The notes under the pieces were generated by a model that was given only the letters and a program-made list of their open reading frames with translations, made no database searches and was not told the origin of the DNA. Positions 1 to 10,303 of a DNA stretch of 13,587 nucleotides are shown here, one piece after another. Source of the stretch: Treponema sp. (GTDB lineage Bacteria; Spirochaetota; Spirochaetia; Treponematales; Breznakiellaceae); contig JAIWNU010000032.1 in assembly GCA_020216655.1 (NCBI GenBank), forward strand, positions 1 to 13,587, given 5' to 3'. Position 1 is the first letter of the stretch. Every line of letters starts with the position of its first letter. The position numbers were made by a program, and so were the translations under genes.

Positions 1-655
1 TGTCGTGGATTTCCCGGCTGATACGGTTTCGTTCCCGGGTAATTGCCTCTTCGTCGGCGGTCCGGGCATAGCGCTGGAGATCCTGATTAAATTCGGAAAG
101 GCGGTCAATGGTCACATCCAAATGGGTAACCGTCTCCTCTGCGGTCCTTAGTTTATCAAGCAGGGCCCGGATAAATGATAGGGACAGCATAACCGCAAGA
201 AGTACGCCGATAAAGGTAAGCTCCGAAGGCCGGTCGATCCGGGGCACCGAAGGCGCTAGCATGGTTTCACCCAGCATACGGCTCGGATGCTGAAACATAG
301 CAAACAGTACAAGGGCGACTCCCCCTGCTATACCGTTCCGCGGCCATTGCAGGGAAAGTCCGCTCATAATAAAAAACGCCGTAGCCAGACAGAGTTTTAT
401 GGTAAGGTAGGCTTCTATAGAGTATCCCAGGATGATATAGGCTGCTACCGCACCAAACCAGGCAAGCAGTTTTCCCGGCATGGTTTGAGCGGCTGCCATA
501 AAAAAACCTGCAATACCCAAAAAAATCCAGGAAACAACAACGGTTGCCCAGAGGTCAAAACTAATCGATGATGCATCGGATATAAATAAAACAATGCCAA
601 GGCCGTACAGGAGGACCGCTATCGCTAGAAGGCTACGTCCTACCGCACGGCACAT
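1..655 (-). CDS. Membrane sensor histidine kinase (NarL/DesK-type, HisKA_3), partial at left edge
   Basis: Reading the minus strand from the ATG at 655-653 gives an open frame of 218 codons with no stop before the window edge. The first 165 residues are strongly hydrophobic, with about six membrane segments (roughly residues 7-26, 33-56, 61-78, 84-100, 108-121 and 146-165). A charged, probably coiled-coil linker follows (166-205). It ends in ERNRISREIHD, the dimerisation/phospho-acceptor signature of HisKA_3 kinases, with the acceptor His at residue 217. The ATPase domain lies beyond the edge. The start codon directly follows the stop of the SufB/D gene (TAAATG), so translation is probably coupled. 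A G-rich stretch about 12 bases upstream, inside the SufB/D end, may serve as ribosome site. By family habit, a LuxR-type response regulator would be expected next. The sensed signal is unknown; no extracytoplasmic domain is visible. Confidence 0.85.
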   Translation of the reverse strand, partial: MCRAVGRSLLAIAVLLYGLGIVLFISDASSISFDLWATVVVSWIFLGIAGFFMAAAQTMPGKLLAWFGAVAAYIILGYSIEAYLTIKLCLATAFFIMSGLSLQWPRNGIAGGVALVLFAMFQHPSRMLGETMLAPSVPRIDRPSELTFIGVLLAVMLSLSFIRALLDKLRTAEETVTHLDVTIDRLSEFNQDLQRYARTADEEAITRERNRISREIHD

Positions 656-1591
656 TTATGACAGGAGCCCCTTAATAATAAGATCGGTAGCTTCGTCTTC
701 GGTGAGACCCCGGCTTAAGAGGGTTTCCAGCTGTTTGGAATCCACCGATCCGATTGCCGCTTCGTGGGTTACATGGGCCCGATGGTCTTTTACAAAGACA
801 ATAGGAATAGCCCGGGCTTGGGCTTCCCCCTGTACGATTTCCTTGCAGTCCACATGGCCTCTGGCAAAGGGCGCTTCGGCAATAATCTCGTTTTCAATAA
901 TTGCCTGGGCCTGCTCTTTTAATGCAATATGGCTGGTTAGAACTCCAACTGCGTTTTCTCCCTTAAGCTCTACTGCCTCGCGGATATGGATAGAGTCATT
1001 GAGCCTCCCGTAGAGCCGGGCTTTCATATCGAGCACTGCGTCCTTTTCGCAATAGCCTTGGTAGTCCAGCTCTACTACCCCGGCAGCCCCCTGGATAAGC
1101 TCAAATTCGGTGCTGTACCGGGCATTTTCGGCCAAATAAACTACCGTTTTTGGGACTATGGTTACCCCACCTTTGGGACCGTGAATATGCCGCTCGAAAT
1201 AAGAAAGGCTTGCGTTTTTCTGCAATTCAATCTTTGCGTCCATAAGATGTTGGACGTTGACCGCGTTCGGGAATGTGCAGTGGGCCATAAACTGGGCCTT
1301 GGCCCCCTCTTCGATCACCGTGTGGGAGATAATCTTTTGTATCCCGTTATCGGGAATAATGCCAAAGCAGAAATGAACCGGCTGCGCAATGTGGACGCCT
1401 GCACGGACCCGAATTTCGACCCGCACACCATCTGAGAAACTTTCAGAGCTGACCTCAAGTCCATCTACCAGGTGAGCCCCCAGCACTTCGTTGCCGTGTA
1501 TTTCGATATGGGCTACCCCAGGTCCATAGTGGTGTTGATTGATGGACGCCAAAAGCTCCGCCAGAAGTTCTTCTTTTTCGTTTGCTGCCAT
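656..1591 (-). CDS. SufB/SufD-family Fe-S assembly scaffold (SmsB-like, short form)
   Basis: 311 residues. This is the beta-helix scaffold on which a SufC ATPase helps build Fe-S clusters in the cytoplasm. The C-terminal half carries the family hallmarks: GHVDCKEIVQG around Cys249 (the position matching the catalytic Cys of SufB), HEAAIGSVD (276-284), and the closing LLSRGLTEDEATDLIIKG. At 311 residues it is much shorter than E. coli SufB (about 495) or SufD (about 420), and no second scaffold gene follows. That matches the two-gene minimal SUF-like system (SmsC-SmsB) described for archaea and some bacteria. The ATG at 1591 has AGGA seven bases upstream and lies two bases after the sufC-like stop, so the two are co-translated. 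I infer that one protein forms a homodimer in place of SufB-SufD. No cysteine desulfurase is visible in the window. Confidence 0.9.
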   Translation of the reverse strand: MAANEKEELLAELLASINQHHYGPGVAHIEIHGNEVLGAHLVDGLEVSSESFSDGVRVEIRVRAGVHIAQPVHFCFGIIPDNGIQKIISHTVIEEGAKAQFMAHCTFPNAVNVQHLMDAKIELQKNASLSYFERHIHGPKGGVTIVPKTVVYLAENARYSTEFELIQGAAGVVELDYQGYCEKDAVLDMKARLYGRLNDSIHIREAVELKGENAVGVLTSHIALKEQAQAIIENEIIAEAPFARGHVDCKEIVQGEAQARAIPIVFVKDHRAHVTHEAAIGSVDSKQLETLLSRGLTEDEATDLIIKGLLS

Positions 1592-1593
1592 AA

Positions 1594-2325
1594 CTATTTC
1601 CTGTCAATGTCGGGACAACCCACATGGGTGCAGGGGGCGCACTGTCCGTTAAAATAATCGAGCATTCGGTCCATGGAGCCCTTGTCGACAATCTGGCCCG
1701 CACAGAGCAAAAATGCGTGATCCGCCTGCTGCAGGACCTCGCCGCTGTGGGTAATAAGGAGGACCGTAGTTCCTTCGGCTTTTAACTCCCGGATTACGGT
1801 AAAAATGTGCTGAATGGAGTCGATATCTACGCCACTGTCTGGTTCATCCATCAAGAGGAGCCGGGGTTTCATGGCATAGACCGAGGCAAGCTCAATACGC
1901 TTTCGTTCTCCCCCGGAGAGGGTTTTATCGACCGCCCGGGAACGGTAGCGCTGGGGATCCAAGCCGACGACCCGCAGTGCTTCGTCCACCAGTCCAGGCC
2001 GTTTTTCCTTTGCCCCGGCAAGGATAAAGTCGGGAACCGAAAGCCCTTCGAAACGGGCGGGCTCCTGGAACACGAGGGTAATGCCGAGCCGGGCCCGTTC
2101 ATCAACAGAAAGACCCTGTATGGGTTTCCCTTCAAAAAGTATTTCCCCTTCAATATCCCGGTAGCCAGAAAGGCCCATAATAGTTTGGGCCAAGGTGGAT
2201 TTCCCCGCCCCGTTAGGCCCGATAACGGCGTGTACATAGCCCTGCCAAATATCGGCTGTTATATCTAGTAGCAGGGGCTTGCCATTCTTTACGAGTGATA
2301 GATTGCGAATTTCCAGTAAGTTCAA
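1594..2325 (-). CDS. sufC: SufC-type ABC ATPase of Fe-S assembly (SmsC-like) with Cys-rich C-terminal tail
   Basis: 243 residues, the normal size for SufC. It hydrolyses ATP to drive conformational change in the SufB/D scaffold. Visible motifs are Walker A GPNGAGKST (36-44), Q-loop Gln87 in VFQEPA, signature LSGGE (136-140), Walker B RLLLMDEP (155-162) and switch His193. No transmembrane segments are present, which fits the soluble Suf class rather than a transporter. The start is a TTG with AAGGA eight bases upstream, and I see no in-frame ATG that fits the domain start. The tail is odd: the last 20 residues include Cys229, Cys232 and Cys237 (CAPCTHVGC), which could bind a metal or cluster. 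It lies 67 bases after the VIT-family gene and 2 bases before the scaffold gene. Confidence 0.92.
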   Translation of the reverse strand: MNLLEIRNLSLVKNGKPLLLDITADIWQGYVHAVIGPNGAGKSTLAQTIMGLSGYRDIEGEILFEGKPIQGLSVDERARLGITLVFQEPARFEGLSVPDFILAGAKEKRPGLVDEALRVVGLDPQRYRSRAVDKTLSGGERKRIELASVYAMKPRLLLMDEPDSGVDIDSIQHIFTVIRELKAEGTTVLLITHSGEVLQQADHAFLLCAGQIVDKGSMDRMLDYFNGQCAPCTHVGCPDIDRK

Positions 2326-2392
2326 CGATGAGTTCCTTTCAGTACTACTATAATCACTTGAACCTTCTGGCGCTAGCCCCTGAATCAGCCTC

Positions 2393-3256
2393 TTACGCGT
2401 CTACTCCGAGCATGATTTTGAGTATCCAGCCTAAGGTAAAGGAAAAGGCTGCCACCCCAAGACTGATAAAGGTCATTTCCCAGAAACGCTGCCTGAAATT
2501 GAGGTCCTTGGCAACGGATATATAATAATTAAAGAGAAAGATAATAGACACCACGATGACAAGGGTAATGGCGAGGCTCACAAATTTATAGGGTATAAGA
2601 AGGTAGGGAAGAATCATCAAAATAACGGTGATAAGGTAGGCTACCCCCGTATACAGGGCTGATCGGGCTGCCCGCGCGTCCCCTTCTGCTTTGGAGGATA
2701 GATAGTCAGAAGCGGCCATAGAGAAGGCGGCTGAAATACCCGTTACAAGACCCGCCAAAGAAATGATTTTTGTATCCCCCAGGGCAAGGGTGAATCCTGC
2801 GAGGGCTCCGGTAAGTTCAACTAATGCATCATTAAGACCGAGGACGATGGAGCCCACATACTGCAGGAGTTCCTCATCCAGCATGGCCAGGAGGCTCTGT
2901 TCATGGGCCGCTTCTTCGGCGCCGATTTTCTTTACTTCCGGAAAGGCTTCCTCAATTTCCGCATATTTGCGGGATGCGGTGCCTTCGTTTTTTTCCATCC
3001 GTTTGAGCACAAAGGTAAGCCCAAGAATACGGGCCAGCATGACCGTCCGCCACACCTTGCCCCAGTTGGGTTGGACCTCTACTCCAGTCTTGGTCTTCCA
3101 GAATTCTGCGTGGCGCCGCTCTGCTTCGCCGATGTCCCGGAGGACCTGGGCATTCTGTTCAGTTTTGGCAAGGGCCGCCAGTTTTGTGTATACATGGTAT
3201 TCGGTAATCTCGTTTTTTTGAGCCGCGAGAATTCGTTTTTTTAAAGCCTCGTCCAT
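2393..3256 (-). CDS. Ferritin-like/VIT1 membrane iron transporter (MbfA-type)
   Basis: 287 residues in two parts. Residues 1-125 form a ferritin-like four-helix domain with diiron-type ligands: Glu16, the E46xxH49 pair in GEAERRH and the E115xxH118 pair in AEEAAHE. Residues 130-287 form a VIT1/CCC1 membrane domain with about five helices (roughly 131-160, 163-185, 203-222, 226-247 and 262-284), including the typical LGLNDALVELTGALAG segment. Family knowledge: MbfA-type proteins export Fe(II) or load it into storage, using the cytoplasmic diiron domain as a sensor/ferroxidase. The ATG at 3256 has a near-perfect AAGGAGG seven bases upstream. The gene stands first in the co-directional iron/Fe-S cluster, which suggests iron homeostasis as the shared theme. 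Manganese transport is possible for this superfamily, but the diiron domain favours iron. Confidence 0.88.
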   Translation of the reverse strand: MDEALKKRILAAQKNEITEYHVYTKLAALAKTEQNAQVLRDIGEAERRHAEFWKTKTGVEVQPNWGKVWRTVMLARILGLTFVLKRMEKNEGTASRKYAEIEEAFPEVKKIGAEEAAHEQSLLAMLDEELLQYVGSIVLGLNDALVELTGALAGFTLALGDTKIISLAGLVTGISAAFSMAASDYLSSKAEGDARAARSALYTGVAYLITVILMILPYLLIPYKFVSLAITLVIVVSIIFLFNYYISVAKDLNFRQRFWEMTFISLGVAAFSFTLGWILKIMLGVDA

Positions 3257-3291: not shown

Positions 3292-3630
3292 TTATCTCTT
3301 TATTATTAAAAGCACAGTATTTATTACTTCTTCAAATTTATCATTTGTAATTTTTTCAATATATTCAATATTTCTTACTGTCCAATCAAGGCTTTTTATT
3401 TGATCACTCAGTACACATCCTTTTATTTTTTCTCCCATAATTTCGACTTCAAAAGGATAGCCTTTTACTTTACTTGTTATAGGGCAAAAGATTGCTAATC
3501 CAATCTTCTCATTATATTCTTTAAAGGAAAGAACAAGTGCAGGTCTACGGCCTCTCTGTTCATGTCCCTGCTGTGGATTAAAATCAAGCCAAACAATATC
3601 GCCTTGATCAGGGACATATTTTTTTACCAT
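3292..3630 (-). CDS. mazF: MazF/PemK-family mRNA interferase toxin
   Basis: 112 residues, typical for MazF/ChpB toxins, which cut mRNA at short sequences in the cytoplasm. The family pattern is clear: GDIVWLDFNPQQGHEQRGRRPALVLS (10-35, with Arg29-Pro30), then CPITSK (49-54, with Thr52) and LSDQIKSLDW (74-83). The start ATG at 3630 overlaps the antitoxin stop by 7 bases, the usual coupled arrangement. The gene appears intact, and the expected catalytic Arg and Thr positions are present. Its sequence is clearly more AT-rich than the flanking genes by eye, which suggests horizontal acquisition. It ends only 35 bases before the VIT-family gene, so readthrough into the iron module is possible. Confidence 0.92.
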   Translation of the reverse strand: MVKKYVPDQGDIVWLDFNPQQGHEQRGRRPALVLSFKEYNEKIGLAIFCPITSKVKGYPFEVEIMGEKIKGCVLSDQIKSLDWTVRNIEYIEKITNDKFEEVINTVLLIIKR

Positions 3631-3857
3631 TCTTCATTTCCCATGGAAGGTCCAGTTTCTATAGCTGAATGCTTATTCTCATTGGTAACTTTTGAAAGTA
3701 ATTCTGTGAGTGTTTTTTTAGGCGGGTGTATTACGATTTTGCCATCTTCTTCGGTAATTTCAACTAAATTGCCGCTTTTCAAATTAAACTCTTTTACATA
3801 AAGAGAAGGAATACGTATTCCGAGACTGTTCCCCCATTTCTGTACTACGGTCTGCAT
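3624..3857 (-). CDS. mazE: MazE-family antitoxin (AbrB-like)
   Basis: 77 residues. The N-terminal 50 residues (QKWGNSLGIRIPSLYVKEF then GNLVEITEEDGKIVI) match the swapped-hairpin AbrB-type DNA-binding fold of MazE. The C-terminal tail ends in ETGPSMGNEEW, closely resembling the acidic/aromatic toxin-blocking tail of MazE proteins. It should bind the MazF neighbour and repress the shared promoter. The ATG at 3857 has GAGGG about eight bases upstream. The AT-rich palindrome just upstream (3880-3894) is the natural candidate for its operator. Codon use is AT-rich like the toxin and unlike the genes on both sides. Confidence 0.92.
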   Translation of the reverse strand: MQTVVQKWGNSLGIRIPSLYVKEFNLKSGNLVEITEEDGKIVIHPPKKTLTELLSKVTNENKHSAIETGPSMGNEEW

Positions 3858-3921: not shown

Positions 3922-3946
3922 GCAGCGGTTTCATTGAAACCGCTGC
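3922..3946 (-). terminator. Probable rho-independent terminator of the pheST-kinase operon
   Basis: A perfect 11-bp stem (GCAGCGGTTTC / GAAACCGCTGC) with a 3-base loop starts nine bases after the stop codon of the adenosine-specific kinase gene. On the minus strand it is followed by TTTGCGATTT, a weak T-tract. It insulates the operon from mazEF. Confidence 0.7.
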
Positions 3947-3954
3947 ACCTATTT

Positions 3955-4446
3955 TTACGCGAACTTGTAGCCAAAGCGGCGCAAAAGGCCCTTCCGCTCA
4001 GTCTTTTCCGCATCCCCTTCCACACCCTTGGGACTGGAGCCGTCTATTACGCCCATGATGCCCCGGCCTTGATCGCTTATAGCCACCACCACCTGTACGG
4101 GATTTGCGGTGGCGCAGTAGATCTGGCAGACCTCGGGGCAGGCCTTGATACGGTCCAGCACATTGATGGGATAGGCGTTTTTCATAATGAGATAGAAGGT
4201 GTGCCCCGCGCCCACCGTAAGGGCGCAGGATTCGGCGGCCTTAACCAGTTCTGCGTCGTTTCCTTCGCTGCGTACGAGGCAGGGCCCGGAGGCTTCATTA
4301 AAGGCTAGGCCAAATTTTACAGCCGGCACCGAAGCGGTCATGATTTCCGCCAGGTCCTCCACGGTTTTGATGAAATGGGACTGGCCCACAATGATATTCA
4401 GGTCCTGGGGAACCGGAAGCTGAACCAGATCAAAGGTTATTTGCAT
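3955..4446 (-). CDS. Adenosine-specific kinase family protein (PF04008/DUF355)
   Basis: 163 residues from the chosen ATG at 4446. An in-frame ATG at 4464 exists, but AAGGAG sits exactly six bases before the 4446 ATG and inside the longer reading, so the shorter start is preferred. The protein shows the family pattern: DLNIIVGQSHFIKTVEDL near the N-terminus, KFGLAFNEASGPCLVR, VGAGHTFYLIMKNAYPINVL, CPEVCQIYCATANPVQVVVA and the closing GRGIMGVIDGSSPKG. The family is small, found mostly in archaea and scattered bacteria. It is named for adenosine phosphorylation reported for archaeal members; its role in the cell is poorly defined. No signal peptide or membrane segment is seen. It follows pheT on the same strand, separated by a hairpin. 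Confidence 0.85.
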   Translation of the reverse strand: MQITFDLVQLPVPQDLNIIVGQSHFIKTVEDLAEIMTASVPAVKFGLAFNEASGPCLVRSEGNDAELVKAAESCALTVGAGHTFYLIMKNAYPINVLDRIKACPEVCQIYCATANPVQVVVAISDQGRGIMGVIDGSSPKGVEGDAEKTERKGLLRRFGYKFA

Positions 4447-4476
4447 GGCAAGCTCCTTACTCATTTTAATTTAAAA

Positions 4477-4511
4477 GAGGACCTCTACAAGCTACCGCTT
4501 GAGAGGTTCTC
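4477..4511 (-). terminator. Hairpin between pheT and the kinase gene (terminator or attenuator)
   Basis: An imperfect stem of about 14 pairs (one mismatch, one bulge) with a GGTA loop is followed on the minus strand by CTTTTAAATT. It lies in the 68-base gap after the pheT stop. It looks like a rho-independent terminator, possibly leaky, that would lower expression of the downstream kinase gene relative to pheST. I see no convincing promoter between it and the kinase gene. Confidence 0.55.
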
Positions 4512-4532
4512 ATCAATATATTTACAGCGTCA

Positions 4533-6275
4533 TTACAGAAGGGCGTCCAGATCGACCTCACAGGCCGTACAGGGCATGGTTACGCCCCAGTTTTCGAGTA
4601 CCTGGGGGTGAAGTTCGCCGAACACGCCGATGCGGCTGCCCTTGTACAGGATTGCCGCAGCCCGGCCGGGGATAAAACGGCTGTCCTCCGCTTCTTCCAC
4701 ATCGTACTCCCGGGAAAGATAGTAGAAGATAGCCTGTATCTGGCTTGCGACAGTGTTAAAGTTGGCATCCGAGGCAGCATGAACAAAGCCCAGGTGCTGC
4801 CGGGTTTTTACCCCATAATTTTCGGTATCATCCCGGTATGCCACCTTACCCACCTCGAAAATCTTGTGGGGGAAGACCGCATGGGCAGATATGGACTCGG
4901 AAATCATGAGGGATGCTAACACTGAATCCCGAACATACTCGTAATTCTCGGTCATAGGATTGCTGATTCGAATAATCTGGGACCCGTCCCGCCGCATCTT
5001 TTCGATAAAGTCTTTGCCGGACCCCAGATAATTGTAGATCATTTCCTGGTATCCAAGGCCGATCATGCACTCTTTAACCCGGCGCGAGAATTGGGTGATG
5101 GGGGTAAGCCGGCCAATGGTAAAGTCCCGGGGTTTAAGGGGCGTAAAAGAGGGAAGGGTGCGGCCTATCATAACGTCCTCTACCACGTCTGCGGCATGGA
5201 GGAAGTCGTTTCGGTATTCCGGAGGATAAACCAGGATGCCGGGGCCCTTTTCTGTGGAGCCCGCTTCTTTATCTTCCGCAACATCAGCCTTGCAGCCCAT
5301 CCGTTCCAGGGCTGCCACACAGGCCTTGGCGTCCAGGGCTTCGCCGAGAAACCGTTCCACCCGCTTCAGCGAGCAGAAGGTTGGTTTCTGGAAATAGTAG
5401 GGGAAGGTAACGGTCCTACCAAAGGGTGTATCATAGGGATATTCTACAGTGACCGGATGCACCGTGTAGCCCATATCGGCAAAATCGCAGGCGGTCATGT
5501 TCACCGCTAAGGTCAAGGATTCCAGGTCCGTGCCGGTCATTTCGATGAACAGTTCCGAGTCGCCCACCTCTACCGCTCCGATCCGGGCGCTGTTAATGAC
5601 CGGCGGGAACGAAAGGGTTTCGCCCGCCGAATCGGTGAGATAGGGGAATTTTTTAAAGGATGAAACGATGTAGCCGTATTCCTGGCCCTTGGGGTGTTTT
5701 TCGCAGATTTCCCGGAGGGAAAGGGTTTCCTCCAAACCCAGGGGTGTGAATTTGGTGCTATCGGGATCGGCGGCCACATAGCGCACCGGCCACTTGATAA
5801 GGCTCGTTCGATAAACCCCCATGGCAATGGAGCGCCGCTTGCGGCCAAAATTCCAGCAGAGTTTTTCCTGGGTTTGGATAATGTCCTTAAGGCGGCTGTC
5901 ATCGATGGCTTTGCCGCTTACCACATAAGCAGCGATATAGGGCCTGATGTCTTTAAGAGCCGGATCTACAACGACCCGGTAGCGTTGAGATTCCTGAACT
6001 GTACCGGGTCGGGAAAAGAATGAATACTGGGGAATACTGCCGCCGCCGTGGATCCGCAGCTGCCGGGCAACGCCGGCGGTAGACCAGAGGTCCGGCCGGT
6101 TTGTGTCGTTAAGCTCAATTTTTAAGACCCGTTCTGCTTCGGGTAGTTTTTTGTCTGAATCTTCGTCCAGCTCTGCCTTCGCGCAGGTAAGGGCTTCTTC
6201 AAAGGCATCCCGGTTCGGCCAGCGCCGGCCTACGAGACTGTAAAAAAGCTGTTCATTCACTTCTATTTTAGGCAT
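4533..6275 (-). CDS. pheT: Phenylalanyl-tRNA synthetase beta subunit, archaeal/eukaryal type
   Basis: 580 residues, the length of archaeal/eukaryal/spirochaetal PheT and far shorter than the roughly 800 of usual bacterial PheT. The N-terminal tRNA-binding (EMAP-like) and C-terminal anticodon-binding extensions of the bacterial form are absent. Seen in order: a B1-like start (VLKIELNDTNRPDLWS, about 49-64), the B3/4 editing region (about 120-275), a B5 domain ending in YRNDFLHAADVVEDVMIGR (354-372), and the catalytic-like core (about 385-580, with FEVGKV at 473-478). With PheS it forms the heterotetramer that charges tRNA-Phe and edits Tyr-tRNA-Phe. The ATG at 6275 has GGAG eight bases upstream; the gene begins 38 bases after pheS. 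Confidence 0.95.
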   Translation of the reverse strand: MPKIEVNEQLFYSLVGRRWPNRDAFEEALTCAKAELDEDSDKKLPEAERVLKIELNDTNRPDLWSTAGVARQLRIHGGGSIPQYSFFSRPGTVQESQRYRVVVDPALKDIRPYIAAYVVSGKAIDDSRLKDIIQTQEKLCWNFGRKRRSIAMGVYRTSLIKWPVRYVAADPDSTKFTPLGLEETLSLREICEKHPKGQEYGYIVSSFKKFPYLTDSAGETLSFPPVINSARIGAVEVGDSELFIEMTGTDLESLTLAVNMTACDFADMGYTVHPVTVEYPYDTPFGRTVTFPYYFQKPTFCSLKRVERFLGEALDAKACVAALERMGCKADVAEDKEAGSTEKGPGILVYPPEYRNDFLHAADVVEDVMIGRTLPSFTPLKPRDFTIGRLTPITQFSRRVKECMIGLGYQEMIYNYLGSGKDFIEKMRRDGSQIIRISNPMTENYEYVRDSVLASLMISESISAHAVFPHKIFEVGKVAYRDDTENYGVKTRQHLGFVHAASDANFNTVASQIQAIFYYLSREYDVEEAEDSRFIPGRAAAILYKGSRIGVFGELHPQVLENWGVTMPCTACEVDLDALL

Positions 6276-6313
6276 CTTGTTTACTCCATCCTCTGCTACA
6301 TTTCGGCAGGGCC

Positions 6314-7918
6314 TTATTCCCGGCTGCTTTCCTTTGCCCGCCTGAGGCGGACATTTTCGATATCATAGCTAAAGAGTTCCCGCAGGTCGTTGAGTCCCAG
6401 GGCCATGAGGGCCATACGGTCAATGCCGATACCCCAGGCGGCTACCGGTACGTCTACTCCCAGGGCCTTAGTAACCTCGGGCCGGAAAATGCCGGACCCG
6501 CCCAGTTCGAACCAGCCCAGCACCGGGTGTTTTATATGCACCTCTACCGAAGGCTCGGTAAAGGGGAAGTAGCCCGGAACGTATTTAACTTCCTTGGCGC
6601 CGGCGACTTCCACGGCAAACATTTCCAGGAAGCCCAGCAGGGTCCTGAGGTTGACCTCTTCTCCGAGAACGATTCCTTCGGTCTGATAAAAGTCCGACAG
6701 GTGTGTTGCGTCGACCCGGTCGTAGCGGAAACAACGGGCAATGCCAAAATATTTCCCTGGCACCTTGGCGGTTGGGAGCTGGCGTGCCGAGAGTACGGTT
6801 CCCTGGCTCCGCAGTATGAGACGCCGGGTAAATTCCCGGTCAAAGGCATAGTTCCAGCCCCGGCTCCCCGTGTCTCCCCCATTTTCATGGGCTGCGGCTA
6901 CCCGGGAAAGCCAGGGTTCTTCTATAAATTTTGCCTTGGTCGGTTCTGCCACATAATACACGTCGTGGATATCACGGGCGGAATGGAACTGGGGCATAAA
7001 GAGGGCGTCGGAGTTCCAGAATTCGGTTTCCACCAGGGACCCATCGAATTCTTCAAAGCCCAGGGAAACGAGCTTATCCTTTACATCTTCCAAGAATTTT
7101 GCATAAGGATTGGAGCGGCCCACAAGGAGGCGGCTTGGCGGAACTTTTACGTTGTAGGAGCGGAAGGCGGCTCCCTTCCAGGCGCCGCTAGCCAGGAGTT
7201 CCGGCGTAAGGGTACCGATTTCATCTCCCGTAATGCCTGCCGCTTCCAAGGCTTTGGCAAGCTCTGAATGAGCTTCGGTAAAGGCAAAGACCACCGTTTC
7301 CCGCTCGGCGATGCGGAAGGCCGCATCGCTGGCGCCTCGTTTTTTGGCAATGCCGGCCATGACGGCCTTTTCCGGCGCTGTGAGGGCCCCTTCGGCCAGT
7401 ACGCCGCCACTGGCGGCGGCGGCCTTTTCGAGGATCCGGCGTAGGGTTGCCATTTTTTCAGCAGCCTCACCCTGTGCAGGCAGGCCGTTGTCCAGTATGT
7501 CCGCCGCCGCAGCCAGCACGACCCGTTTGGCCTCATCCATGGCAAGAAGTCCCGCCTTAGAGAGGGCTCCAAAGGCGCTGCCAACGTCTTTGTTTTCGAT
7601 ACCGAGAGCCTCGGCAATTTCGGGAAGCCGGAGGCCCTGTTTGGTTTTAAGGAGCTTGAGCATCCGTTCTTCCGGCGTCCCCTGTTCTTTCCACTGGCGG
7701 CCCAAATCTGTCAGTTCATAAAAAATACTTGTTTCACGCCTGACTTCCCGTACAAGACCCTTGCTGGAAAGCCACGAAAGGGCCTGATTTCCGTTTCCGC
7801 TTTTAAATCCGAGGTCGGATTCTACTTTTTCGATGGTGAGTTCATCCTGCATTCCATAATGCCGGATTATCCGGACTTCGAGGGGATGCAGATTTTTAAC
7901 CAATGCTTGAGTATCCAT
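6314..7918 (-). CDS. pheS: Phenylalanyl-tRNA synthetase alpha subunit, archaeal/eukaryal type
   Basis: 534 residues from the ATG at 7918, which has GGGAG six bases upstream; an in-frame TTG four codons earlier lies over that ribosome site and is rejected. The N-terminal 130 residues hold winged-helix-like DNA/RNA-binding repeats (for example [22 protein letters not shown] and [20 protein letters not shown]), typical of the archaeal/eukaryal alpha subunit. The class II core follows: motif 1 near [13 protein letters not shown] (311-323), motif 2 [19 protein letters not shown] (397-415) and motif 3 [13 protein letters not shown] (496-508). It binds Phe and ATP and makes Phe-AMP. An Ala-rich stretch (about 135-200) is more variable and may be a lineage insert. 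The gene is first in the operon, divergent from the YjbQ-family gene. Confidence 0.95.
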
Positions 7919-7933
7919 GAAAACTCCCAAAAG

Positions 7934-8002
7934 TCCCGGCCCACATGTCTGTTATTATCCGGGATGTGGGTATACGTTACCCGAGAAGGGCCTTCCTGTA
8001 AA
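7934..8002 (-). promoter_or_regulatory. pheST promoter/leader candidate with competing hairpins
   Basis: On the minus strand TTTACA (8002-7997) and TAACGT (7979-7974) are 17 bases apart, a weak sigma70 match. Downstream of it, two stems compete for neighbouring bases: 7940-7946 with 7964-7970 (CCCACAT/ATGTGGG) and 7934-7939 with 7959-7964 (TCCCGG/CCGGGA). The second stem ends six bases before the ribosome site at 7924-7928. A further stem, GGGTA/TACCC, sits at 7968-7982. No T-box consensus and no Phe-rich leader peptide are visible. Confidence 0.3.
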
Positions 8003-8020
8003 GACCGGAGCTGTTATTTG

Positions 8021-8049
8021 TGGACGATTCTAAAAGTATGCTTCATAAT
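8021..8049 (+). promoter_or_regulatory. Promoter of the YjbQ-family gene
   Basis: TGGACG at 8021-8026 and CATAAT at 8044-8049 are separated by exactly 17 bases. Transcription would begin at about 8056-8057, at the ATG itself, which has no ribosome site before it. This fits a leaderless mRNA. Confidence 0.5.
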
Positions 8050-8056
8050 AAGCTGT

Positions 8057-8473
8057 ATGAAATCCCTCACTAAGGAACTCTGGTTCGAGACCAGAAAGAA
8101 GCGAGAGTTTATCAACATAACGCCTCAGGTGGCCGACCTCGTTCGGGAATCGGGGGTGCAGGAAGGACTCTGTCTGGTAAATGCTATGCATATTACCGCC
8201 AGTGTGTTTATCAATGATGATGAAGGGGGGCTGCATCAGGATTTTGATGCCTGGCTCGAAAAGCTTGCTCCCCATGAGCCGGTCTCTTCCTACCGGCACA
8301 ATGTGGGCGAGGACAATGCGGATGCCCACATGAAACGCCAGATTATGGGCCGGGAAGTGGTGGTTGCCATTACCCGGGGAGAACTCCATTTTGGTCCCTG
8401 GGAACAGATTTTTTACGGCGAATTCGACGGCCAGCGGCGCAAGCGGGTCCTGGTAAAGATTATCGGGGAATAG
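8057..8473 (+). CDS. YjbQ/UPF0047 family protein
   Basis: 138 residues, the normal length for UPF0047 (PF01894). The family pattern is complete: [33 protein letters not shown], then [47 protein letters not shown]. The conserved His and Asp residues form the expected trimer active-site cleft. E. coli YjbQ has weak thiamine phosphate synthase activity, but the true role of the family is unsettled. The open frame extends upstream to 7859, but that extra part overlaps pheS and matches no family sequence, so the ATG at 8057 is used. It is the only complete plus-strand gene here, transcribed alone and convergent with the next operon. Confidence 0.9.
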
Positions 8474-8557: not shown

Positions 8558-9253
8558 TCAGTAGGCGGGAAAGGGTGAGATGTCGATTACTTCTATATAA
8601 AAGGTGGCGCCGCACTGCCAGCGGCCCGCATCCATCCAGTAGCGGGGAAAAGCCGCCAGGGCGACAAAACCGGTACTGTGCTTGGGCCGGTTCCGCTCGG
8701 TGCCCCGTAAAAGGGACCGGACTGCTGCGCGGGCCGCATCCTCCAGGGCCTGCTTTTTGCCATCGAGCCAGCCTGCGGCGCCCGGGCCAGCCAGGGGGCC
8801 GTTCCCGATGGCCTGCACTTTATTAATGGTCCCGCTCTTCCATTGTTTAATCCTCCGTTCCTGACTTGGGTCGGGCCGGTAATCCATCCATACAAAAAGA
8901 TAGCTCCCTTCGAGCAGGGCATCGGTAGCAAAGAGTTTTTCGTCGCCGAAGGGGATGGTTCCCTGGTTTTTAAGTTCAAACTGTTCGGGAATGGCCCGGG
9001 CCTTTTCGCCTATTTCATAGTCATAGGCCCATCCGTATATCATGGCTCCGAAATAAAGGGCCGCTTCTTCCAAGGCCCGTTTTTGGGCGGTTTTTGTATC
9101 CAGCGGATAGGGTTCCTCAATATACTGAATATAAACTGGCTCTAGATCTACCCTGACTTCTCCCCGGAGAACCGTCTGCGGCCAGGCGGGAAGGCTGCTG
9201 AGTACTAAAAGGGTGAGCAATGCGGTATGTGCCTTTATGGTTTGCTTGAGCAC
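8558..9253 (-). CDS. Secreted/periplasmic protein of unknown function
   Basis: 231 residues from a GTG at 9253, which has GAGGAG six bases upstream; the open frame continues to 9313, but only the GTG start puts the signal peptide at the very N-terminus. Residues 1-26 form a signal peptide: Lys/His-containing n-region, LLTLLVLSSL core, and a likely cleavage after about residue 23-26 (PAWPQ). There is no lipobox Cys. The mature part has two alanine-rich helices (KRALEEAALYFGAMIYG, 58-74; KKQALEDAARAAVRSLLRG, 166-184) separated by a beta-rich middle and a C-terminal sheet-like end (WQCGATFYIEVIDI). This helix-then-sheet pattern faintly recalls LPP20-like lipoproteins, but I do not recognise the family. 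It is the last gene of the operon, after the rhomboid protease. Confidence 0.75.
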   Translation of the reverse strand: MLKQTIKAHTALLTLLVLSSLPAWPQTVLRGEVRVDLEPVYIQYIEEPYPLDTKTAQKRALEEAALYFGAMIYGWAYDYEIGEKARAIPEQFELKNQGTIPFGDEKLFATDALLEGSYLFVWMDYRPDPSQERRIKQWKSGTINKVQAIGNGPLAGPGAAGWLDGKKQALEDAARAAVRSLLRGTERNRPKHSTGFVALAAFPRYWMDAGRWQCGATFYIEVIDISPFPAY

Positions 9254-9280
9254 CGGCTGCTCCTCAAGGGGATTTATTGA

Positions 9281-9313
9281 TTGCAGAGCGCCGCTTAAAG
9301 GAGCGGCGTGCAA
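9281..9313. other. Intergenic hairpin between rhomboid and secreted-protein genes
   Basis: Nested inverted repeat: outer TTGCA/TGCAA and inner GCCGCT/AGCGGC stems around a 5-6 base loop, 16 bases after the rhomboid stop. On the minus strand no T-tract follows, so it is more likely an mRNA processing or stability element within the operon than a terminator. Confidence 0.45.
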
Positions 9314-9329
9314 GGTTTCCTTGTTTTAT

Positions 9330-9962
9330 TTATCGGCGAATCTTAAGATAATGCCAGGGATTCTCTCCATATCGGATGATAAAATAAAGCCATGCAAAGG
9401 CAAAACCCGCCAGGTGGGTAAAGTGGGCGACGCCGGAAGCAATGCCGGTAACCGAAAAAAAGAGTTCCAGGGCGGTAAAACCCAAAACCATAACAGGGGC
9501 CCGCAGGGGCAGTATGCCCCATAGGTAGACTATGGAATCGGGGAAAAAGGTTGCATAGGCAAGCTGGACTGCAAAGAGGGCCCCCGATGCCCCAAGGAGA
9601 AATACCGAGGCAGAACCGGTAAGCAGGAAGAGTCCAAAGGAAAAAAGGCCGGCAAAAAAACCGGTTACCATATAAAATAGGAGAAACTCTTTGGATCCCA
9701 TTTGCCGTTCAACAGGGGTGCCGAAAAAGAAGAGCCCCAGCATATTAAGCAGCAGATGGGATATGCCTCCGTGGGCGAACATGTAGGTTAAAAACTGCCA
9801 CACCATGCCGTAGCGGAGCACAAGCTGGGTATTAAGCGATAAATAGACTGTTGCTTCGGGGAAAAGGTTCTGGGCAAGAAACACCAGGAGATTGATCCCA
9901 ATGAGGACGAGGACCAGATTGTCATAACGGTACCGAAAAGGTTTACGGATAATGGTATTCAT
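9330..9962 (-). CDS. Rhomboid-family intramembrane serine protease
   Basis: 210 residues from the ATG at 9962, with about six membrane helices, the size of the basic bacterial rhomboid. The catalytic dyad is present: Ser126 in LGASGALFA (the GxSG motif) and His183 in FTHLAGFAF. The second helix carries the HxxxN motif (His69-Asn73 in SHLLLNMLG). Rhomboids cut membrane proteins within or near their transmembrane segments. The frame extends upstream to 10172, but that part overlaps the ferredoxin gene and has no rhomboid features, so the later ATG is chosen, although no strong ribosome site precedes it. The substrate is unknown; the co-transcribed secreted protein is not an obvious single-span membrane substrate. 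Confidence 0.93.
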   Translation of the reverse strand: MNTIIRKPFRYRYDNLVLVLIGINLLVFLAQNLFPEATVYLSLNTQLVLRYGMVWQFLTYMFAHGGISHLLLNMLGLFFFGTPVERQMGSKEFLLFYMVTGFFAGLFSFGLFLLTGSASVFLLGASGALFAVQLAYATFFPDSIVYLWGILPLRAPVMVLGFTALELFFSVTGIASGVAHFTHLAGFAFAWLYFIIRYGENPWHYLKIRR

Positions 9963-9994: not shown

Positions 9995-10303
9995 TCAATC
10001 GAAAAGATATACATCGGTGTCGGCAAAAACATAGGTCTGGCAGGCAAGCCGGTCTCCTGCCGCAGGATCCGCTCCAATGGCTGTAAGCCGTTCTGCCTCT
10101 TTGGCTGATATACTGTTTGTAACTGTGCTGTCTTTGCTTGTGGCGCTTATTCTGATGCGGCAGGTGCCGCATTGGGCCTTGCCGCCGCAGCGGTGGTGCA
10201 TGGCAATGCCTGCAGAAAGTAACGAATTAAGCAGCGAAACCGCAGGAGATACGGATATGCGGGAGATCCGGCCATCAATATGATGTACCTTGATTTGTAC
10301 CAT
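9995..10303 (-). CDS. 2Fe-2S ferredoxin (adrenodoxin-type Cys spacing)
   Basis: 102 residues, a small soluble electron carrier. The four cluster ligands are Cys39, Cys45, Cys48 and Cys88, spaced C-x5-C-x2-C-x39-C, in HRCGGKAQCGTC and RLACQ. The x5 gap is the adrenodoxin-like rather than the plant-type (x4) arrangement. It begins 5 bases after the diguanylate cyclase stop and ends 32 bases before the rhomboid gene, so it is firmly within the operon. The partner reductase or oxidoreductase is not visible. DusB-type enzymes use flavin and NADPH, so a role as their donor would be only a guess. A weak ribosome site (GAAG) precedes the ATG. Confidence 0.9.
   Translation of the reverse strand: MVQIKVHHIDGRISRISVSPAVSLLNSLLSAGIAMHHRCGGKAQCGTCRIRISATSKDSTVTNSISAKEAERLTAIGADPAAGDRLACQTYVFADTDVYLFD

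What the first reader, a model, noticed from the sequence alone, without database searches (positions are those of the whole stretch)
1..3256. Iron transporter, minimal Fe-S assembly pair and a sensor kinase in one co-directional cluster
A ferritin-like/VIT1 iron transporter, a SufC-type ATPase, a single short SufB/D scaffold and a NarL-type histidine kinase lie on one strand with gaps of 67, 2 and 0 bases. The kinase ATG touches the scaffold stop (TAAATG). A kinase coupled in translation to an Fe-S scaffold is not an arrangement I know. It may report iron or Fe-S status to a response regulator just outside the window, giving a self-contained iron-sensing circuit.
Basis: partly seen in the sequence, partly recalled or inferred. 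Interest (0 to 1): 0.7.

Follow-up and report, generated by a model that had tools for sequence, protein, structure and literature searches.

The report
Iron-sulfur genes beside sugar-uptake regulators
In a small group of spirochaete bacteria, a minimal two-gene iron-sulfur assembly machine has become joined head-to-tail to a signalling pair that, from the DNA evidence, most likely controls a sugar transporter, so this looks like two neighbouring modules fused together rather than a new iron sensor.

Summary
In detail: VIT1-type transporter, SufC-like ATPase, short SufB/D scaffold and HisKA_3 kinase lie on the minus strand with gaps 67, 2 and 0 and a TAAATG junction. The contig end cuts the kinase; its other half and the predicted LuxR-type response regulator (RR) are on own-genome contig C3. 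The SufC/SufB pair is a bacterial SMS: closest solved relatives are MJ0035/MJ0034, and the three [4Fe-4S]-ligand cysteines of M. jannaschii SmsC are conserved. Iron sensing is not supported. The kinase follows SmsB in 5 genomes of two genera (one clade); a survey of 65 SmsB loci finds only three of those five. Of 13 compared relatives outside the clade, 8 have sugar ABC genes beside them. A palindrome, GGKAC-N4-GTMCC, lies upstream of the sugar-binding gene in 9 of 9 genomes with both that gene and the RR orthologue (unlinked in two), in 0 of 2 without the RR, and not in the VIT1-SMS region. The kinases share no cysteine set for a cluster. Best reading: an operon fusion of SMS with a sugar-transport two-component system. 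Open: read-through may tie regulator dosage to Fe-S assembly.

The parts
2393..3256 (-). VIT1/CCC1-family iron transporter with an N-terminal ferritin-like (rubrerythrin) stretch, MbfA-like layout, 287 aa
   Evidence: ORF; VIT1 above cut-off; Rubrerythrin 20.3 bits, below its cut-off of 22.8; weak match to solved VIT1 6iu3. Just upstream of SmsC in 6 of the 6 same-family genomes that have a close SmsB: G000-G003, G017, G024.
1594..2325 (-). SmsC (SufC-like ABC ATPase of the minimal SMS), 243 aa, TTG start; cysteines C208, C229, C232 match the [4Fe-4S] ligands C218, C239, C242 of M. jannaschii SmsC
   Evidence: MJ0035 E=3e-64; bacterial SufC 2d2e 1.1e-32; the three Cys invariant in 6 of 6; ligands, PMC12192291 section 8
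656..1591 (-). SmsB (short SufB/D scaffold), 311 aa
   Evidence: MJ0034 E=2.7e-64; E. coli SufB 0.002; SUFBD_core; eight spirochaete orthologues 68-96% identical to it
653..658 (-). SmsB stop / kinase start, TAAATG, zero gap
   Evidence: same in G001, G002, G003; TGATG overlap in G024
1..655 (-). N-terminal part (membrane sensor, up to the HisKA_3 histidine) of a 409-aa NarL-family sensor kinase; rest on G000:C3:9426-9998, followed there by the response regulator (8738-9439) and a sugar ABC transporter (SBP match 7041-8285, permeases 6083-6967 and 5222-6067), with the candidate operator at C3:8395-8408
2326..2392 (-). 67-base VIT1-SmsC gap; ribosome-binding-like AAAGGAAC before the SmsC TTG; no operator palindrome (best 4 mismatches), no promoter-like match listed here
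3922..3946 (.). perfect 12-nt-arm inverted repeat (terminator-like in the + strand scan) between the PheS-PheT-adenosine-kinase-like genes and the insert/VIT1-SMS genes

Best explanation
The locus is two modules fused end to end. Module 1 is a bacterial SMS Fe-S assembly machine (SmsC2B2, using SmsC's own cysteines to hold a [4Fe-4S] cluster) with an MbfA-like iron transporter in front, which would limit or supply free iron. Module 2 is a NarL-family two-component system, a membrane kinase and a LuxR-type response regulator, that in many relatives sits beside a carbohydrate ABC transporter and that probably regulates it by binding GGKAC-N4-GTMCC upstream of its sugar-binding-protein gene. In the common ancestor of Gracilinema and genus g22 (G024) the kinase became joined to the SmsB stop codon, so kinase and regulator are now probably transcribed and translated with SmsCB, while their output remains the sugar transporter. 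Shown: gene order, homology, ligand conservation, operator distribution. Inferred: co-transcription, translational coupling, regulator-operator binding, the sugar signal, iron transport direction.
For: SMS identity. Kinase, regulator, sugar-binding protein (SBP), permeases: (closest solved SBP is AcbH, E=2.5e-65). Of the 18 kinases compared, 13 are outside the SmsB-linked clade and 8 of these 13 have sugar ABC genes beside them, including four instances of two other cassette types inside the genus; so do the four Gracilinema ones themselves. G051 carries both SMS and the kinase-regulator-ABC cassette, on different contigs. Tree: the SmsB-linked kinases form one clade (99/98) inside a wider group that includes ABC-linked kinases, so probably one joining event. 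Operator: 11 exact GGKACN4GTMCC in 300,595 bases of 24 chosen neighbourhood loci, 10 of them just before the SBP orthologue and 1 before a lipoprotein-like frame that heads another ABC cassette; exact match in 9 of 9 genomes with both SBP and RR orthologues, also where these are unlinked (G024, G298); none in G037 or G062, which lack the RR at E<=1e-30; four paralogous cassettes 2-4 mismatches; 0 in the window at up to 1 mismatch. SmsB loci: kinase directly after SmsB in 3 of 65.
Against: No transcript or binding data. In G024 the two-component pair stays with SmsB although the ABC transporter is elsewhere, which could mean a functional tie to SMS. Of the 13 kinases outside the clade, 5 show no clear adjoining ABC: G015 and G019 none in 9 and 13 kb, G026a and G049 at contig ends, G035 only a permease-like gene about 4 kb away. 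Of 7 SBP orthologues at 60% identity or more with visible upstream sequence (G298, G037, G062) have no regulator next to them. The palindrome was first read off eight of these same upstream regions; only G298, G346 (exact) and G512 (one mismatch) are out of sample. G001's three exact GTACC-form copies lie elsewhere; its SBP has the GGGAC-N4-GTCCC form. Another regulator could bind it. Kinase relatives P0013, P0014, P0016-P0026 (61-70% identity) have unseen neighbourhoods.
Confidence: 0.75

Rival explanations
1. One reading: a self-contained iron or Fe-S sensing circuit. The kinase reports iron or cluster status and the response regulator controls VIT1 and SmsCB.
For: Near-zero-gap junction conserved in two genera; iron transporter and Fe-S scaffold co-directional; in G024 the pair stays with SmsB without the ABC transporter.
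Against: No shared multi-cysteine sensor; operator at the sugar gene and not at VIT1/SmsC; G017 keeps VIT1-SmsC-SmsB with no kinase there; most other SMS loci seen lack the kinase; G051 has both modules unlinked.
Confidence: 0.07
2. Dosage link: the sugar two-component system keeps its target, but because it rides on the SMS transcript its level rises and falls with demand for Fe-S assembly, tying sugar uptake to Fe-S supply.
For: Conserved zero-gap or one-base-overlap junction despite only 38% identity in the sensor region between G003 and G024; G024 keeps the SmsB linkage although its ABC genes are elsewhere.
Against: Only five genomes and probably one event; no transcript data; neutral fixation explains it as well; an internal promoter inside smsB was not excluded.
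Confidence: 0.15
3. The palindrome is the site of some other sugar regulator, and the two-component system's true target lies elsewhere.
For: A palindrome alone names no protein; G001 has three exact GTACC-form copies away from the SBP.
Against: It follows the presence of the response regulator orthologue even when unlinked (9 of 9 with, 0 of 2 without) and is absent from four paralogous cassettes with other regulators.
Confidence: 0.15

Closest known systems
SMS (SmsC2B2) of Methanocaldococcus jannaschii (MJ0035/MJ0034; solved chains 9h78, 9h7y, 9hbl; described in PMC12192291)
   Same: Two-gene SmsC-SmsB order, short SmsB of about 311-316 aa, three cluster-ligand cysteines conserved, best sequence match to a solved structure for both proteins.
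   Different: Bacterial (spirochaete), in a genome that also has a SUF locus with two further SufB/D genes (G000:C60); preceded by a VIT1-type transporter and followed by a kinase.
NarL-family transporter regulators such as UhpB-UhpA and MctS-MctR (names from NCBIfam; function recalled)
   Same: HisKA_3 membrane kinase plus LuxR-type regulator next to a transporter; MctS and UhpB models are the best NCBIfam hits of the kinase (90 and 79 bits).
   Different: Far below those models' cut-offs (700 and 408 bits); the transporter here is a binding-protein-dependent sugar ABC system; kinase joined to smsB.
MbfA (ferritin-like plus VIT1 iron exporter of rhizobia; PMC4902296, search listing and start of abstract only; domain layout recalled)
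   Same: VIT1 domain with an N-terminal rubrerythrin-like stretch.
   Different: Ferritin-like hit is below the Pfam cut-off; export not shown; neighbour is SMS.
DesK (solved kinase domains)
   Same: Top Foldseek matches of the kinase model are DesK catalytic cores; DesK is also a multi-helix membrane sensor (recalled).
   Different: Match covers the catalytic core only (whole-model TM 0.27); the membrane sensors were not compared; target genes differ.

Membership tests
SMS (SmsC-SmsB minimal SUF) | adjacent smsC and smsB without sufD or cysteine desulfurase in the same unit | tested here: met
   SmsC next to SmsB in 68 of 69 related loci with room. A separate SUF locus exists on C60.
SMS (SmsC-SmsB minimal SUF) | SmsC C-terminal cysteines that hold the [4Fe-4S] cluster (C218, C239, C242 in M. 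jannaschii) | tested here: met
   C208, C229, C232 align, invariant in 6 of 6 spirochaete SmsC; ligands from PMC12192291 section 8
SMS (SmsC-SmsB minimal SUF) | closer to characterised SmsB/SmsC than to SufB/SufC | tested here: met
   MJ0034 2.7e-64 against E. coli SufB 0.002; MJ0035 3e-64 against SufC 2d2e 1.1e-32
NCBIfam NF052511 (SmsB model, type 'exception') | score above the curated cut-off of 650 bits | tested here: not met
   70.8 bits, best of its four NCBIfam hits. The model has 445 positions, longer than the 311-316 aa M. jannaschii-type proteins; whether MJ0034 passes it was not tested. So not filed under this model.
NCBIfam TIGR01978 (SufC equivalog) | score above the curated cut-off of 212.8 bits | tested here: not met
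   171.2 bits, the best of its NCBIfam hits but below cut-off: SufC-like, not filed as SufC
SMS (SmsC-SmsB minimal SUF) | cluster assembly from sulfide, ATP and cluster binding mutually exclusive | not testable with these tools
   needs purified protein
NarL-family two-component system | HisKA_3 + HATPase_c kinase and Response_reg + GerE regulator, adjacent | tested here: met
   (G003 and G024); own-genome halves
Fe-S or PAS/GAF redox sensor kinase (NreB/AirS type, recalled) | cytoplasmic sensor domain with a cluster-ligating cysteine set | tested here: not met
   Cys 2 and 89 only in the window's 409-aa kinase, Cys 89 alone in G024; G002 has four (2, 66, 89, 101), of which 66 and 101 are its own; no PAS/GAF hit; modelled sensor is a helix bundle
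MbfA-type iron exporter | VIT1 domain | tested here: met
   57.5 bits against a cut-off of 28.1
MbfA-type iron exporter | N-terminal ferritin-like domain | tested here: inconclusive
   Rubrerythrin 20.3 bits, below the cut-off of 22.8
Iron-sensing circuit run by the linked response regulator | its operator upstream of VIT1 or SmsC | tested here: not met
   palindrome: best 3-4 mismatches there in the regions scored, no better than shuffles; G024's VIT1 upstream gap was too short to score
Iron-responsive operon under Fur | Fur site upstream of VIT1 or SmsC | not tested
   no Fur-site search was run

The most novel reading that the evidence does not exclude
The joining of smsB to the kinase is selected: translation of the Fe-S scaffold sets the amount of a sugar-sensing two-component system, so that sugar uptake is throttled to the cell's capacity to build Fe-S enzymes. 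G024, where the transporter genes lie elsewhere but the regulator stays with smsB, would be its footprint.
Probability: 0.13. Interest if true: 0.55.

Novelty: new member of a known kind. Interest (0 to 1): 0.3.

Why it matters
It removes a claimed iron-sensing circuit and replaces it with a testable target: a named palindrome at a sugar transporter. It also shows an archaeal-type SMS with its cluster ligands intact in spirochaetes, some carrying SUF as well and some in which it is the only SufB/D-type gene found (several of these assemblies are incomplete). Such bacteria could serve for asking why a cell keeps SMS when it also has SUF.

Tried and rejected
Iron or Fe-S sensing by the kinase: tested through cysteine content, predicted fold, neighbourhoods and operator location; not supported. 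Reading the SufB/D gene as a degraded SufB or SufD: rejected, since its frame is intact and closest to MJ0034. Kinase next to SmsB in one strain only: rejected (5 genomes). Kinase next to SmsB as a general SMS feature: rejected (3 of 65 loci; 2 of 23 phylum-sample loci, both Gracilinema; one of the 23, L179, shows only about 105 bases downstream). One further locus (L126) has a kinase and regulator within 2 kb of SmsB, but on the opposite strand. A promoter in the VIT1-SmsC gap could not be argued: the scan listed none there. The operator upstream of the kinase gene itself (autoregulation) was looked for in G051, G056 and G179: best 2-4 mismatches. The survey patterns reach only relatives of this SmsB type, so archaeal SMS loci were not surveyed. 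Searches for a published SMS/two-component link listed none that I recognised from title and abstract; that covers only this open-access library.

Rows left out of counts: kinases of G023 and G054 were fetched but not put in the 18-row comparison (cut-off contigs or overlong frames); those of G298, G346, G379 and G512 came later and are not in the tree. G126's SBP starts at a contig end and could not be scored for the operator. In one search, seven of 72 SmsB loci had under 600 bases downstream and were not counted. The 24 loci were chosen from the larger set of fetched loci. The five more distant SBP matches (34-41% identity) were not scored for the operator. At one mismatch L245 and L247 hold four further matches away from the sites named. 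The checkpoint note says the toxin-antitoxin insert is absent from G001-G003; one search corrects this: G003 has it.
Full report
Observation. On the minus strand: VIT1-type transporter 2393-3256, SufC-like 1594-2325, SufB/D 656-1591, kinase from 655 to the left edge. Gaps are 67, 2 and 0 bases, with TAAATG at 653-658. Pfam confirms VIT1, ABC_tran and SUFBD_core. The kinase stub has no Pfam hit by itself, but its full-length orthologue in G003 has HisKA_3 and HATPase_c. The window is G000:C4 of a 251-contig assembly. The kinase's other half is on C3:9429-9998. C3 is exactly 10,000 bases and, end to end with C4, gives an uninterrupted 409-aa frame, so the left edge looks like an assembly chunk boundary. 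The predicted LuxR-type response regulator (RR) follows on C3:8738-9439 (domains from the G003 orthologue), then a sugar-binding protein (SBP) and two permeases.

What the Fe-S pair is. The 311-aa scaffold's best solved relative is MJ0034 (E=2.7e-64), the SmsB of M. jannaschii; a 429-aa chain (4dn7) follows at 9.5e-21, and E. coli SufB scores 0.002. The ATPase's best is MJ0035 (3e-64; bacterial SufC 1.1e-32). The paper on that complex (PMC12192291; abstract and sections 4, 8, 12, 13 read) shows that C218, C239 and C242 of SmsC hold the [4Fe-4S] cluster. These align with C208, C229 and C232 here and are invariant in 6 of 6 spirochaete SmsC. Against: NCBIfam's SmsB model (445 positions) scores 70.8 bits, far below its cut-off of 650, and its SufC model 171.2 against 212.8. 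I therefore call it an SMS of the M. jannaschii type and file it under neither model. The same genome has a SUF locus with two further SufB/D genes on C60. Of 11 genomes checked, five (G000-G003, G017) have such a pair as well, and six have a single SufB/D-type gene.

How far the linkage goes. Among 58 genomes, own included, 10 have a close SmsB (68-100% identity). The kinase follows directly in 4 of 4 same-genus genomes and in G024. It does not in G017, G051, G042, G057 or G048; G042's contig ends 674 bases past SmsB, so that is a short view. The junction is TAAATG in the four and TGATG in G024. Of 72 SmsB loci from the species-level genome collection, SmsC adjoins SmsB in 68 of 69 with room. 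VIT1 is present in 3 of 62 with room, the same three. In a 296-genome phylum sample, 23 have SmsB and 2 of those 23 have the kinase, both Gracilinema. In a 390-genome order sample, 9 have a close kinase (E<=1e-85), and 5 of them are the SmsB-linked ones.

What the kinase belongs to. One search compared 18 kinases. Five are SmsB-linked; four of these five (Gracilinema) also have the regulator and carbohydrate ABC genes next in line, in G002 with a contig break inside the SBP. Of the other 13, eight have sugar ABC genes beside the kinase-regulator pair: G051, G179, G056, one of G026, and four instances of two paralogous cassette types within Gracilinema. Of the remaining five, G015 and G019 show none in 9 and 13 kb, G026a and G049 lie at contig ends, and G035 has only a permease-like gene about 4 kb away. 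G051 is the cleanest case: SmsC-SmsB on one contig, and kinase-regulator-SBP-permease-permease on another, with the SBP 84-85% identical to Gracilinema's. From the SBP side, 8 matches of 60% identity or more were found in 296 genomes: a regulator adjoins in 4 (G000, G001, G056, G179), not in 3 (G298, G037, G062), and 1 (G126) is at a contig end. The SBP's best solved match is AcbH (2.5e-65). SmsB-linked kinases form one clade (99/98) within a group that includes ABC-linked ones, so the junction probably arose once. In G024 the SBP orthologue is on another contig, with no kinase or regulator match among the frames scored around it, while the regulator stays with SmsB; this is the main fact in favour of some tie between regulator and SMS.

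The operator. Reading the regulator-SBP intervals side by side showed a palindrome, GGTAC-N4-GTACC or GGGAC-N4-GTCCC. As GGKACN4GTMCC it is exact upstream of the SBP in 9 of 9 genomes with both SBP and RR orthologues: G000, G001, G002, G003, G024, G051, G056, G179, G298. In G024 and G298 the SBP and the regulator are unlinked. G298's site was seen before its regulator was sought. G037 and G062 have the SBP but no regulator match at E<=1e-30, and no site (2 and 5 mismatches). Four paralogous cassettes have none (2-4 mismatches). Two kinase loci fetched later have it at ABC genes: G346 exact, between the regulator and a 460-aa lipoprotein-like frame followed by permeases; G512 with one mismatch, about 120 bases before a frame that looks like an SBP (neither frame was family-searched). 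Across 24 chosen neighbourhood loci (300,595 bases) there are 11 exact copies; 10 lie upstream of the SBP orthologue and the eleventh is the G346 one. The window has none at up to 1 mismatch, 1.22 expected. VIT1-SmsC gaps and VIT1 upstream regions do no better than shuffles (G024's VIT1 upstream gap is too short to score). Genome-wide the GTACC form is not unique: 3 places in G000; and in G001 its 3 places are all away from the SBP, which has the GGGAC-N4-GTCCC form instead.

What the kinase could sense. The model of the G003 orthologue (40-row alignment, mean pLDDT 77.6, pTM 0.50) has six helices in about the first 170 residues, mostly at pLDDT 80-94, and a loop of about 20 residues at about 61; a hydropathy scan of the window's kinase flagged five membrane-like segments. 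The window's kinase has only Cys 2 and 89, as do G001 and G003; G002 has four (2, 66, 89, 101); G024 only Cys 89. No shared cluster site follows from that. Foldseek finds DesK catalytic cores on top. The sensor part diverges fast (38% G003 to G024, 20% to G051) while the catalytic part holds (76% and 68%), so the signal may differ between lineages and is not known here.

Conclusion. The arrangement is real and conserved in a narrow lineage, but the evidence points to an operon fusion of an SMS module with a sugar-transport two-component system. Shown: gene order, homology, cysteine conservation, operator distribution. Inferred: co-transcription, translational coupling, binding of the operator by this regulator, the sugar signal and the direction of iron transport. 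Of the other papers, PMC12442378 and PMC12236494 were seen as passages and the rest as search listings.

Noticed in passing
window 3292-3857 (-): A MazE-MazF-like toxin-antitoxin pair sits between the adenosine-kinase-like gene and VIT1. The ~700-base insert is shared with G003 (95% over 706 bases) but absent from G001, G002, G017 and G024, where that gap is 3-74 bases.
   Followed up: partly
G042, G048, G051, G056, G057, G024: These spirochaete genomes show a single SufB/D-type gene (the SMS one, or in G056 a distant relative) and no SufB+SufD pair, so SMS may be their only SUF-type scaffold. Other systems (ISC, NIF, MIS) were not searched, and some assemblies are incomplete.
   Followed up: no
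L100, L102, L105, L106, L158: SmsB 68-70% identical to the query (the window's) in MAGs labelled Goldbacteria, Endomicrobia and Methylomirabilis, about as close as within the spirochaete order: either transfer between anaerobes or binning error.
   Followed up: no
G000:C3/C4/C60: Contigs C3 and C60 are exactly 10,000 bases and C3 runs seamlessly into C4: the assembly seems to have been cut into 10-kb chunks that were not rejoined.
   Followed up: partly
window 9998-10303 (-): A small Fer2-type [2Fe-2S] ferredoxin gene lies between a GGDEF gene and a rhomboid-family frame, whose long-ORF start it overlaps.
   Followed up: no
window 3955-8473: PheS, PheT and an adenosine-specific-kinase family gene (PF04008) precede the VIT1-SMS genes also in G001, G002, G003 and G017, and a UPF0047 gene follows the pattern in G001, G002 and G017.
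   Followed up: no
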